Of a DNA stretch of 64,000 nt, positions 56,377 through 59,605 are shown one piece after another. Each line of letters opens with the position of its first letter. The first letter of the stretch is position 1. The stretch is from Brockia lithotrophica. Its GTDB lineage: Bacteria; Bacillota; Bacilli; Thermicanales; DSM-22653. Under the pieces are notes generated by a model. The model was given only the letters and a program-made list of their open reading frames with translations. It searched no databases and was not told the DNA's origin. The position numbers and the translations under genes were made by a program. The stretch is taken from positions 1-64,000 of the forward strand of contig PEBW01000005.1 in assembly GCA_003050565.1 (NCBI GenBank), written 5' to 3'.

Positions 56377-56790
56377 TCAGCCGGGCGGGATGTGCGCGTC
56401 GGAGCGCCTGGAGTTTGCGCGCGCAGGCGCCCCCAAAATGGAAAGAAGCCGCTTGAGGACTTCCTGGACGACGGGGTGTTCGGCCTCCAGGTGGCAGATG
56501 AGCTCCGCCTGACGGGCCCGATAGTCGAGGCTGCGAACTTGGTCCGCCAATACAAACCCCCGCACGCACACGTCCGGCGGAAGTTCCACGGAAAAGAGGT
56601 AGTAGTCGCGCTTCGTCTGCGTGATGGGGCAGAAGAGCGCAAACCCCGTGATCTTGTGAAACGCGTACTCCGACACGACGATCGCCGGCCGGCGATCGCG
56701 GATTTCCCGCCCCTGCTGGGGGGAGAAATCGAGCCAAACGATATCCCCCTTCTGCGGAATGTAACCGGGGGCCGTATGTCCGTTGTTCAC
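56377..56790 (-). CDS. MazF/PemK-type mRNA interferase toxin
   Basis: The 137-residue product has the PemK-fold blocks: PQKGDIVWLDFSPQQGREIR (residues 12-31), DRRPAIVVSEYAFHKITG, the conserved CPITQTK and VRGFVLADQVRSLDYRAR. MazF family members cut RNA at short sequences and slow growth. The C-terminal 25 residues (GAPARANSRRSDAHIPPG end) are an unusual tail. GTG 56790 lies three bases after the upstream gene's stop, so the two form a toxin-antitoxin-like pair in which the presumed antitoxin comes first. Confidence 0.88.
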   Translation of the reverse strand: MNNGHTAPGYIPQKGDIVWLDFSPQQGREIRDRRPAIVVSEYAFHKITGFALFCPITQTKRDYYLFSVELPPDVCVRGFVLADQVRSLDYRARQAELICHLEAEHPVVQEVLKRLLSILGAPARANSRRSDAHIPPG

Positions 56791-56793
56791 GGA

Positions 56794-57432
56794 TCACCAC
56801 ATCTCTCTTCCCACTGGATTCATCTCCTGCCATACACGTATTTCCAAAAGGTCGTCGGTGTGCATCCGGTGGCGGGAAAGGAGGCACATGAGATAGAAAA
56901 GGCCGGGCGTCGTACACCCCCGAGATAGGAGTTCCGCGAGCTTTTCTTCGAACCGTCTGCGGAGAGACTCCAAGGAGAGTTCTCCCAGGGCTCGGGTGGA
57001 CGAAGGGAAATGCATGCCCGTCATCATGGCCAACACCCCGACCCCAAGGGAAGACCTCTCCGGCGAAAATTCGCGCTCGGCAAAGGGCGGAGGCTGATCC
57101 GCAACGATGTCCTGCAAAAACCCGTCCTCGGCGTCGGGGTGGGTTTCCAGCCATTCGATCACCGCATCGAGGATTTGGCGCTCGTCGAGGGTGAGGTGTT
57201 CCCAGGTCGCACCCGGCAAGGTGTGGATCCAATCCTCGGCGGAAAACTCGTCGCACAGCCCGGGAATGTGCAGCTCACCGCGCACGCGGAAGATGCGCTC
57301 GCGAAAGAGGGGTGACCCCCTCCACGCCAGCGTCCACCCTTGCGCGAAGAGGAGAATCGCCGCGAGCCGCGCTTTCGTTAGCGGCCCCTTCTTCTTCAGT
57401 ATGTACGCCGCCACGTCTCGTACACGAGGCAA
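56794..57432 (-). CDS. Panacea (DUF4065/SocA-like) antitoxin candidate
   Basis: The 212-residue product begins VRDVAAYILKKKGPLTKARL, then AAILLFAQGWTLAWRGSPLF. This is the pattern of the Panacea domain (known members: '..yil.kkg.it.lKLqKLLYFaqgw.La..gkPLF'). It is followed by the LTLDERQILDAVIEWLETH block that closes many such domains. The C-terminal 90 residues are an extra helical part with Met- and Arg-rich stretches. Panacea antitoxins are known to pair with many unrelated toxins. Here the partner would be MazF. The start is TTG 57432 behind GGAGGCGGG. The family call is from memory of the motif and is fairly, not fully, certain. Confidence 0.65.
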   Translation of the reverse strand: MPRVRDVAAYILKKKGPLTKARLAAILLFAQGWTLAWRGSPLFRERIFRVRGELHIPGLCDEFSAEDWIHTLPGATWEHLTLDERQILDAVIEWLETHPDAEDGFLQDIVADQPPPFAEREFSPERSSLGVGVLAMMTGMHFPSSTRALGELSLESLRRRFEEKLAELLSRGCTTPGLFYLMCLLSRHRMHTDDLLEIRVWQEMNPVGREMW

Positions 57433-57763
57433 GGCGCCCGCCTCCTCCGGCGATCTCGGCGTTCATCTCCCGCCCCGACCGCGGGATCCCGCGCCGATAT
57501 GGGCTGCGTAGTCCCTATCCCTCTTTCTCCGGCCGTTCCCGTAGCATACGGGCCCGGCCCGTCCAAGCCAATTCCCTTGTCTTCCATCCTACCAGAGCCT
57601 CAAAAAGAGCACAAGGTTTTTTTCGACGTGCTGCCTTGCCTGGAAGGAAGGCAAAAAAGAAAAGATAAGAAGAGGGGGACCCGGCGCTCGGCGCGAAAAC
57701 GCGCTGACCGAAAAAACCGGCGGACTCCTCCGGAGTCCGCCGGCAAGTTCGCGCTCTCCTCGG
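57433..57763. other. intergenic region between psrC and the antitoxin candidate
   Basis: About 330 bases. It holds the psrC terminator and must hold the promoter of the toxin-antitoxin pair. I see no further gene. Confidence 0.55.
57711..57743 (-). terminator. terminator of the psrABC operon
   Basis: Eleven-pair stem CCGGCGGACTC/GAGTCCGCCGG (57717-57727 with 57733-57743), CTCCG loop, then TTTTTT on the minus strand. Confidence 0.92.
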
Positions 57764-58867
57764 TCACTGCAGGAAGTGAACGAAGTACCCGGCCTCGAGG
57801 ATGAGGTAGCGGAGGAGGAGACCGCCGGCAACGGCCAAAAGGGAGGCGAGCTGTCCCGCGGAGAAGAAGCGGGCACCCCCCTCCTCACCTTCCGCGGGCG
57901 GAGCAGGCGATGCCTCCGGAGCAAGCGTCCCTTGGGAATGCAACGCTCCTTCCGCCGATCCCGCCCAAGCCGGCGCAAAGCGCATGGCGTGCGCGGCGAG
58001 GAGGTGCTTTCGTTCTCTGAGTTCGATGTACAGGGGAACGACGAGCCCGAACAGGACGAGCCCGCCCCAAAACAAAGGGGCGAGGCGCCCCCACATGAGT
58101 TCGGCTACGGCGGCGCGGCCGGCTACGTCTCCGTACCATCCGAAGTAGAGGAGGCAGAAGAGGAGGAAGAGCTCGAGCCCTTTGAGCGAAACCCCCAGGT
58201 TCAAAAAGGGAAGGGTGTGTGCCTCCGCGCGGGAATCCCAGGCCACGGCCGTAAAGAGGGTGACGGCGATACCCGTGGAGAACGCCGAGGTGACGAAGAG
58301 AACCGGGAGGACGGACGTGTTCCAAAGAGGGACCGCGTGCACGTTGCCGATGAGGAGGGCCGTGTACGTAGCCGTCGCCGCGGCCATCACGAGGCCGAGG
58401 AAGTCAAGCCCTGGGCGACCTTCGACGAGCCACCGAAGCCAGCGGGGCGGCCGGGAAAAGAACCGGTCAAGACCCAGGGGCCAACGCTTCTCGCCCCCTT
58501 CCTTCCAGATTTCGGCGAGCGTGACGACGAATCGGTACAGGGCGAGCGGGGTGAACACCGTGAGGATGTACACGCCGATGGCCATGATGGACGTCGGCCG
58601 CCCGATGTAAAGGTAGATGAAGCGCCACGGGTGGAAAAACCCCGCCTCTGCGTCCACCATGAGAAGGACGAGACCGACGATCACGAGCCAAGGGGCGACG
58701 AGGTAGCCAGACCAGCGAATCTTCCGCGCCTCCGGGTAGAGGCGCTGGGCGAGGTACGCCGTAGCGTACGCCCCTGCGCTCATCCCGGCGAGGAAGAGGT
58801 ACAGGGCGATGATGATCCCCCAGATCTGTCCGGGCATGGGCATTTCGTGCGAACCCAAAACGGGCAT
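57764..58867 (-). CDS. psrC: NrfD/PsrC-type membrane subunit
   Basis: The product of about 367 residues has 8-10 membrane helices: WGIIIALYLFLAGMSAGAYA near residue 15, LLMVDAEAGFFHPWRFIYLY, RPTSIMAIGVYILTVFTPLA and LYFGWYGDVAGRAAVAELMW. It matches the NrfD family, which oxidises menaquinol and passes electrons to an iron-sulfur subunit. A Pro/Ala/Glu-rich loop (GTLAPEASPAPPAEGEEGG) lies before the last helix. The start at ATG 58867 is likely, but a GTG four codons upstream with GAGGAAA is also possible. It is the last gene of the operon. Confidence 0.88.
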   Translation of the reverse strand: MPVLGSHEMPMPGQIWGIIIALYLFLAGMSAGAYATAYLAQRLYPEARKIRWSGYLVAPWLVIVGLVLLMVDAEAGFFHPWRFIYLYIGRPTSIMAIGVYILTVFTPLALYRFVVTLAEIWKEGGEKRWPLGLDRFFSRPPRWLRWLVEGRPGLDFLGLVMAAATATYTALLIGNVHAVPLWNTSVLPVLFVTSAFSTGIAVTLFTAVAWDSRAEAHTLPFLNLGVSLKGLELFLLFCLLYFGWYGDVAGRAAVAELMWGRLAPLFWGGLVLFGLVVPLYIELRERKHLLAAHAMRFAPAWAGSAEGALHSQGTLAPEASPAPPAEGEEGGARFFSAGQLASLLAVAGGLLLRYLILEAGYFVHFLQ

Positions 58868-59008
58868 CGTCCTCACCACTCTTTCCTCAGCGTTGTTTTC
58901 CGTCCAACGTCCCACACGTTCCGCCGGAAACGCGAGAGAGAAAGGCAGGTTTCTCCCCGCCCCGCTCTCCCGGAGAAAGGTCCCCCGCACTCACGAAGAG
59001 AAGTCCCT

Positions 59009-59548
59009 TCACCACACGTAGAAGAACTTCGGCTCCGTGCCCAGGTCCGGGCGAAGCGGACGCGCGTGGCGCTCGTTGATCGCCCGCACGAGTTCACCCT
59101 CCGGATCGTCAAGATCGCCAAAAATTCGCGCGTCTCCGATGCACGTCCGCACGCACATCGGCTGCTCGCCTTTGTGGATCTGCTCGAAGCAGAAAACGCA
59201 CTTCACCGGGGTCTTCGTCTCTTCGTCGAGGACGCGGGCGTTGTACGGGCACGAGGTCATGCAGTACTTGCAGCCGATGCAGCGGTGCTCGTCGATGAGG
59301 ACTATCCCCCCGTCCCCGATGTAGCTCGCCCCCGTAGGGCAGTTGTACACGCACGGCGGGTTTTCGCAGTGTTGGCACTGCACGGGAATGTTCAAGAGGG
59401 AGACGTCCGGGAACGTCCCGAATTCCTGTTGGTAGAACTTGATGTAGTGGACTTCCGGTGCGAGCTCGTTCTGCATCTGACAGCCTACCGTGCACGCCAT
59501 ACACCCCGCACAGGCCGTGAGGTCGAGGAGCATGCCGTAGCGGGCCAC
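59009..59548 (-). CDS. psrB: PsrB-type four-cluster ferredoxin subunit
   Basis: The 179-residue product has four [4Fe-4S] motifs: CAGCMACTVGC near residue 14, CQHCENPPCVYNC near 58, CIGCKYCMTSC near 90 and a split CVFC...CVRTC near 117-131. This is the DmsB/PsrB fold that wires the NrfD-type membrane subunit to the molybdoenzyme. GTG 59548 follows GGGAGG and gives the usual VARYGMLLDLTACAGC start. An ATG at 59605 would add 19 residues. Confidence 0.93.
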   Translation of the reverse strand: MARYGMLLDLTACAGCMACTVGCQMQNELAPEVHYIKFYQQEFGTFPDVSLLNIPVQCQHCENPPCVYNCPTGASYIGDGGIVLIDEHRCIGCKYCMTSCPYNARVLDEETKTPVKCVFCFEQIHKGEQPMCVRTCIGDARIFGDLDDPEGELVRAINERHARPLRPDLGTEPKFFYVW

Positions 59549-59605
59549 CGGAAACACCTCCCAATTCGCGCAAAGGTCGAGCTCCCATAAGGCGGGAAGG
59601 GACAT

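What the first reader, a model, noticed from the sequence alone, without database searches (positions are those of the whole stretch)
56377..57432. Toxin-antitoxin pair: Panacea-like antitoxin with a MazF toxin
A 212-residue protein with the DUF4065/Panacea pattern (VRDVAAYILKKKGPL, FAQGWTLAWRGSPLF) is followed after three bases by a MazF/PemK toxin. MazF is usually paired with a small DNA-binding MazE-type antitoxin. Panacea antitoxins are known to have been swapped onto many toxins, so a Panacea-MazF pair would be a further partner change. The antitoxin candidate also carries a 90-residue extra C-terminal part that might hold toxin specificity. The domain call is from memory, so the novelty is not proven.
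Basis: partly seen in the sequence, partly recalled or inferred. Interest (0 to 1): 0.75.

Follow-up and report, generated by a model that had tools for sequence, protein, structure and literature searches.

The report
Panacea antitoxin with MazE-like toxin-binding tail
Next to an ordinary MazF RNA-cutting toxin, this bacterium lacks the usual MazE antitoxin and instead has a hybrid: a Panacea domain in place of MazE's DNA-binding part, joined to a MazE-type tail predicted to plug the toxin, which makes it a natural test of how antitoxins are built from swappable pieces.

Summary
The two genes are real, at the stated coordinates, 3 nt apart, on the minus strand. The second encodes MazF (PF02452, E 1e-21) with intact catalytic residues, the only one in the genome. 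The first has no Pfam hit. Its residues 3-96 are nevertheless homologous to Panacea by profile comparison (97.3%, E 2.6e-11), by all eight tblastn hits in plasmids and phages (seven annotated SocA/GepA, one unannotated phage gene that is Panacea by sequence), and by a predicted Panacea-like fold. The refinement is at the C-terminus. The protein ends ...NPVGREMW, and the MazE antitoxins beside the nearest MazFs end ...PVGRE[IV]W. This match has a chance of about 2-5 in a million and no equal among 2,627 ORF ends. In the K. pneumoniae MazEF crystal the equivalent last residues enter a MazF pocket beside the active site. So the antitoxin is best read as a chimera: Panacea replaces MazE's AbrB DNA-binding domain and the MazE toxin-plugging tail is kept. 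A congener has the pair in synteny, and the tail module and MazF are under strong purifying selection. PemK/MazF toxins beside Panacea are already published; a MazE tail on Panacea is not in the main texts I read. New variant of a known kind. Toxicity and neutralisation are untested.

The parts
56794..57432 (-). antitoxin gene, 212 aa, Panacea-MazE-tail chimera (P0001)
   Evidence: ORF with TTG start; syntenic homologue P0003, 72% identical, in the congener genome G001
57441..57448 (-). ribosome-binding site GGAGGAGG, 8 nt before the TTG start
   Evidence: sequence; identical in G001
57100..57426 (-). divergent Panacea (DUF4065/SocA) domain, residues 3-111
   Evidence: hhalign 97.3%, E 2.6e-11 over residues 3-96; all plasmid and phage tblastn hits are Panacea/SocA/GepA; AF2 pLDDT about 93 over residues 1-100
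56980..57087 (-). fast-evolving, predicted disordered linker, residues 116-151
   Evidence: AF2 pLDDT <50 at 116-150; dN/dS 0.83 for 126-151, with an indel
56797..56979 (-). conserved C-terminal module, residues 152-212: two predicted helices (154-170, 176-187), then the tail
   Evidence: 84% identical to the congener, dN/dS 0.125; secondary structure
56797..56844 (-). MazE-type toxin-binding tail EIRVWQEMNPVGREMW, residues 197-212
   Evidence: last 7 residues score 18.9 bits on a profile of 37 MazE tails (median 20.1); iid null 2 in 10^6; 0 of 2,627 ORF C-termini; tails listed
56377..56790 (-). MazF/PemK endoribonuclease toxin gene, 137 aa (P0002)
   Evidence: PF02452 E 1e-21; PDB MazF 7dhp E 7e-25; catalytic R34 and T57, RNA-binding P35, D83 and Q84 conserved
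57716..57744 (-). intrinsic terminator of the upstream nrfD-type gene, so the pair is probably its own transcription unit
   Evidence: 13-pair stem followed by T run; conserved in G001

Best explanation
This is a type II toxin-antitoxin operon with a chimeric antitoxin. MazF is an mRNA-cleaving endoribonuclease. The antitoxin gene comes first and its protein has two functional ends. The C-terminal end (residues about 152-212) is a MazE-type neutralising element whose last residues (GREMW) plug the hydrophobic pocket next to the MazF active site, keeping the toxin off while antitoxin is made. The N-terminal end is a divergent Panacea domain that replaced the AbrB/SpoVT DNA-binding domain of ordinary MazE. 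It probably serves as a folded platform or sensor that decides when the tail lets go, not as the neutraliser. SHOWN by sequence: the gene pair, the MazF motifs, Panacea homology, the MazE-type terminal motif, conservation and purifying selection in a second species, absence of any MazE beside it. INFERRED: RNase activity, tail-pocket binding, neutralisation, the sensor role, and common descent (rather than convergence) of the tail with MazE.
For: Tail: the antitoxins next to the closest MazFs in Bacillota and viral contigs end P[VI]GRE[IV]W or close variants, against PVGREMW here and PIGREMW in the congener. Profile score 18.9 bits (16.8 for the congener), MazE median 20.1; chance 2 in 10^6 (iid) or 5 in 10^6 (own composition); 0 of 2,627 ORF C-termini, best 7.3. 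None of about 100 ordinary Panacea proteins examined has the tail, so it is not a Panacea feature. Structure: in the K. pneumoniae MazEF crystal (PMC8086154) a MazE fragment of residues 45-76 forms the complex; its C-terminal loop wraps the MazF dimer and its last residues (Met75, Leu76; sequence GKEML) make hydrophobic contacts, Leu76 with MazF L14, A30, V47, P49 and L81. The equivalents here are L20, A36, F53, P55 and L88, with catalytic R34 and T57. The MazE solved with the closest PDB MazF (7d2n) ends EGREEW. Panacea. Selection: dN/dS 0.125 (residues 152-212) and 0.166 (MazF), against 0.42 (residues 1-125) and 0.83 (linker). Polarity: same-order genome G005 has an ordinary AbrB MazE (tail EGNELF) beside its MazF, 42-44% identical to P0002. 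Precedent: Panacea joined to a C-terminal Phd-C tail that, fused to SUMO, neutralises Doc without Panacea (PMC10440598).
Against: The shared motif is short (7 residues, about 16 with the looser EIxxWxE part). Upstream of it the C-terminal module (RRFEEKLAELLSRGC...HRMHTDD) shows no clear alignment to MazE, so convergence cannot be excluded. The P0001 AF2 model leaves the tail disordered, and the tethered P0001-P0002 model did not dock it. Panacea is below Pfam detection and has lost several invariant residues (K25, Y28, the GPV motif, the LTHxExPW motif). Only two genomes have the architecture. No wet evidence.
Confidence: 0.78

Rival explanations
1. Panacea neutralises MazF directly through its globular domain, as in Bartonella choladocola PanA, and the C-terminal motif is incidental or only auxiliary.
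For: Panacea alone neutralises some toxins (PMC10440598); PemK toxins beside Panacea are reported (PMC8832971).
Against: The Panacea half evolves about 3 times faster (dN/dS 0.42) than the C-terminal module (0.125) although MazF is strongly conserved; the terminal motif matches those of the nearest MazF's own antitoxins at 2-5 in 10^6.
Confidence: 0.1
2. The tail arose by convergence: an unrelated C-terminal extension was selected by the MazF pocket to end in GxE-hydrophobic-W. It works like MazE without being derived from it. (This rivals only the origin part of the best explanation, not the mechanism.)
For: No alignable MazE sequence upstream of the last 16 residues; short linear motifs evolve easily.
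Against: The heptamer agrees with the commonest MazE form PVGREIW at 6 of 7 positions, including P, V and R, which vary among working MazE tails; the MazF itself belongs to the subfamily whose antitoxins use this tail.
Confidence: 0.25
3. A decayed or domesticated relic: a defunct TA pair in a small 1.7-Mb genome, with a Panacea domain losing its motifs.
For: Panacea signature residues are partly lost; the linker is nearly neutral (dN/dS 0.83).
Against: Both genes intact in two species; MazF dN/dS 0.166, equal to the neighbouring nrfD-type gene 0.163; catalytic residues intact.
Confidence: 0.06
4. Antitoxin and toxin are also made as one read-through fusion: the only codons between them are one TGA and one sense codon, in the same frame.
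For: The TGA and the frame are conserved in both species.
Against: A 3-nt spacing always keeps the frame; MazF has its own GTG start; no read-through signal was identified; a covalent fusion would hide the free C-terminal W that the mechanism needs.
Confidence: 0.03

Closest known systems
MazEF / ChpS-ChpB / PemIK (E. coli, D. radiodurans 7d2n, K. pneumoniae pKPN7)
   Same: MazF toxin with the same catalytic and pocket residues; antitoxin gene first; antitoxin ends in the same G-x-E-hydrophobic-aromatic tail
   Different: no AbrB/SpoVT DNA-binding domain; the antitoxin is 212 aa instead of about 80, with Panacea at the N-terminus
PanAT systems (Kurata 2022, PMC8832971)
   Same: Panacea antitoxin upstream of a small toxin; PemK/MazF-like toxins are among the known partners
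   Different: Panacea here is too divergent for PF13274, and the protein carries a MazE-type tail, not mentioned in the main text
Corynebacterium doosanense DocD6:PanA with Phd-C (Ernits 2023, PMC10440598)
   Same: architecture: Panacea core plus a C-terminal neutralising tail shared with the classical antitoxin of the same toxin family
   Different: toxin is MazF and tail MazE-like, instead of Doc and Phd; that system is experimentally validated, this one is not

Membership tests
MazF/PemK toxin | PF02452 domain over its whole length | tested here: met
   E 1e-21, positions 2-108 of 109
MazF/PemK toxin | catalytic Arg and Thr, RNA-binding Pro/Asp/Gln | tested here: met
   R34, T57, P35, D83, Q84 align to K. 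pneumoniae R28, T51, P29, D76, Q77
MazF/PemK toxin | ribonuclease activity and toxicity | not testable with these tools
   needs expression
Panacea (PF13274 SocA/DUF4065) antitoxin | hit to PF13274 above gathering score | tested here: not met
   no hit at E<=10; none in the genome
Panacea (PF13274 SocA/DUF4065) antitoxin | homology to Panacea proteins by sensitive comparison | tested here: met
   hhalign 97.3%, E 2.6e-11; tblastn hits 4 of 4 in plasmids annotated SocA, 3 of 4 in phages annotated GepA, the fourth unannotated but Panacea by sequence
Panacea (PF13274 SocA/DUF4065) antitoxin | Panacea fold (seven helices, two strands) | tested here: inconclusive
   AF2 residues 1-111 confident with helices and two strands; best viral match E 6e-4 (unnamed), second is a Panacea protein at E 0.024, prob 1.00; the alignment used Panacea rows, so partly circular; no significant PDB match
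Panacea (PF13274 SocA/DUF4065) antitoxin | conserved motifs KLQKLxYY, GPV, LTHxExPW | tested here: not met
   read RLAAILLF, GEL, LQDIVADQPPPF here
MazE antitoxin | N-terminal AbrB/SpoVT (PF04014) DNA-binding domain | tested here: not met
   no PF04014 hit in P0001 nor near the locus
MazE antitoxin | C-terminal G-x-E-hydrophobic-W toxin-binding tail | tested here: met
   PVGREMW, 18.9 bits, chance 2-5 in 10^6
type II TA operon | antitoxin-toxin gene pair, tight spacing, conserved in more than one species | tested here: met
   3-nt gap; syntenic in G001
type II TA operon | direct protein complex that neutralises the toxin | not testable with these tools
   tethered AF2 model did not dock the tail

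The most novel reading that the evidence does not exclude
A fourth neutralising element for Panacea antitoxins, 'MazE-C', beside Phd-C, PAD1 and the MqsA zinc-binding domain: MazE's AbrB DNA-binding domain was replaced by Panacea in one Bacillota lineage while the MazF-plugging tail was kept, so that Panacea is the main folded domain left and must supply regulation or sensing.
Probability: 0.6. Interest if true: 0.6.

Novelty: new variant of a known kind. Interest (0 to 1): 0.5.

Why it matters
It is a clean natural case of antitoxin modularity: the toxin and the toxin-plugging tail look like standard mazEF while the folded domain has been exchanged. The open question about Panacea is whether it neutralises or senses (Ernits et al. 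2023 favour sensing). Here the predicted neutraliser is a known linear MazE-type tail whose binding site is solved in relatives, so the Panacea half can be deleted or swapped to ask what it contributes. It also shows that pipelines relying on PF13274 miss divergent Panacea antitoxins, so the counted range of Panacea partners may be too small.

Tried and rejected
Pfam, NCBIfam and PADLOC scans of P0001 gave nothing; PHROGs gave weak hits to two families that ordinary Panacea proteins hit strongly. PDB sequence search of P0001: nothing. A search with the C-terminal 54 residues in plasmids gave only chance hits. Search for other chimeras: 30 Bacillota Panacea loci and 80 viral Panacea loci showed no adjacent MazF and no such tail (one viral locus, L136, has a MazF ORF more than 1 kb away); 29 Bacillota and 35 viral MazF neighbours with an identifiable upstream ORF all have AbrB-type MazE; profile A3 in 398 phylum and 399 class genomes (overlapping samples) found full-length relatives only in this genus. 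The phylum-wide MazF family search mainly returned the best-scoring chromosomal type and was not useful for partners. A first structure alignment mixing Panacea and MazF rows was misaligned and dropped. The tethered antitoxin-toxin AF2 model (TGA read as W, a computational device only) folded MazF at pLDDT about 97 but left the tail at about 35, so it says nothing on the interface. A hidden MazE gene beside the pair was rejected.

Full report
OBSERVATION. Window 57432-56794 (minus, 212 aa, TTG) and 56790-56377 (minus, 137 aa, GTG) are two genes 3 nt apart. The antitoxin start has GGAGGAGG 8 nt upstream. The upstream nrfD-type gene ends in a strong terminator at 57744-57716 that is also present in the congener, so the pair is probably its own transcription unit; a tRNA-Leu lies just downstream at 56293-56208. 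G000 (1.69 Mb) has no other PemK-family gene and only two AbrB/MazE domains, both on a different contig. The same-genus genome G001 has the pair in the same place, with the same flanking genes.

TOXIN. P0002 is a MazF by Pfam and PDB (best 7dhp/7d28). Its closest relatives in 249 Bacillota genomes are 40-50% identical. Aligned with K. pneumoniae pKPN7 MazF, the catalytic residues R34 and T57, the RNA-binding P35, D83 and Q84, and the antitoxin-tail pocket L20, A36, F53, P55 and L88 are present.

ANTITOXIN, N-TERMINAL HALF. Pfam's Panacea HMM misses it, but every sensitive comparison points to Panacea: 47% identity over residues 1-47 to Arthrobacter and Bifidobacterium proteins that do hit PF13274; 4 of 4 plasmid hits annotated SocA domain; 3 of 4 phage hits annotated GepA-like, the fourth an unannotated ORF with the Panacea sequence; hhalign 97.3%, E 2.6e-11 over residues 3-96. 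AlphaFold2 with Panacea rows gives a confident domain for residues 1-111 and Foldseek finds viral Panacea models. That alignment makes the fold result partly circular, so I rest the claim on sequence. The canonical KLQKLxYY, GPV and LTHxExPW motifs are eroded.

ANTITOXIN, C-TERMINUS. I extracted the ORF upstream of each of the nearest MazF genes. All 29 Bacillota neighbours read and the viral ones for which an upstream ORF was found (35 of 36) are AbrB-type MazE proteins, mostly 77-105 aa, nearly all ending in G-x-E-hydrophobic-W (or F, I, L), most often P-V-G-R-E-[IV]-W. P0001 ends NPVGREMW and its congener NPIGREMW. On a profile of 37 MazE tails (which does not contain P0001) the scores are 18.9 and 16.8 bits, against a MazE median of 20.1; 2 of 10^6 background and 5 of 10^6 own-composition heptamers reach 16.8, and none of 2,627 ORF C-termini (best 7.3) or 270,164 internal heptamers does. 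About 100 ordinary Panacea proteins lack it. A longer but looser match is EIRVWQEMNPVGREMW against EEIDWGEPVGEEIW of L063.

WHY THE TAIL SHOULD NEUTRALISE. In K. pneumoniae MazEF (PMC8086154) MazE residues 45-76 form the complex; the C-terminal loop wraps the MazF dimer and the last residues, M75 and L76 of ...GKEML, make hydrophobic contacts with MazF near the catalytic R28/T51 centre. The MazE solved with the closest PDB MazF ends EGREEW. A review gives the general rule for MazE: AbrB N-terminus for DNA, disordered C-terminus for toxin (PMC4803016). The AF2 model shows the P0001 tail disordered on its own, as expected for such an element but not specific to it.

SELECTION. Between the two species dN/dS is 0.125 for residues 152-212, 0.166 for MazF and 0.163 for the neighbouring nrfD-type gene, but 0.42 for residues 1-125 and 0.83 for residues 126-151. 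The part predicted to touch MazF is thus as constrained as MazF.

ORIGIN. Same-order genome G005 has an ordinary AbrB MazE beside its MazF. Full-length relatives of P0001 were found only in this genus in two overlapping samples of about 400 Bacillota genomes each. The likely event is replacement of MazE's DNA-binding domain by Panacea in this lineage, with the tail kept; convergent evolution of the tail is the main alternative.

COMPARISON WITH WHAT IS KNOWN. Kurata et al. 2022 (PMC8832971) report PemK toxins beside Panacea and two validated PanATs with MazF-like toxins by HHpred, so the partner choice is not new. Ernits et al. 2023 (PMC10440598) show Panacea joined to Phd-C, PAD1 and the MqsA zinc-binding domain, with neutralisation by the attached element, and propose Panacea as a sensor. 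The locus here fits that scheme with a MazE-type element, which the main texts do not mention. Their supplementary tables could not be read, so priority is not proven.

VERDICT. A probable, well-conserved TA pair with a chimeric Panacea-MazE-tail antitoxin: new variant of a known kind. Working mechanism 0.78; toxicity, complex formation and sensing are inferred, not shown.

Noticed in passing
window 56788-56799: Antitoxin and toxin are in one reading frame, separated only by TGA and one sense codon (TGG TGA TCC GTG); TGA and frame are the same in the congener. Possibly trivial from the 3-nt gap.
   Followed up: partly
window 57402-57480: The leader and first 18 codons of the antitoxin gene are almost identical between the two species while flanks diverge, and hold an inverted repeat TGTACG-N11-CGTACA (57424-57402): a possible operator or RNA element, but such a repeat is not rare by chance.
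   Followed up: no
L003 5450-5911, L005 5447-5968, L045 1947-2483: Unannotated proteins directly downstream of Panacea genes in Arthrobacter, Bifidobacterium and a phage contig share an ending like FxxVWWDxxHxxxP; the two tested have no Pfam hit. Candidate Panacea-neutralised toxins.
   Followed up: no
window 59009-59605 and 57764-58990: A 4Fe-4S protein and an NrfD-type membrane protein in a row, as in polysulfide/molybdopterin reductase operons; identified by eye only.
   Followed up: no
own genome G000 (all contigs): The genome has no second PemK-family gene, so it seems to lack the chromosomal EndoA-type mazF of other Bacillota, where 223 of 249 sampled genomes have a PemK-family hit.
   Followed up: partly
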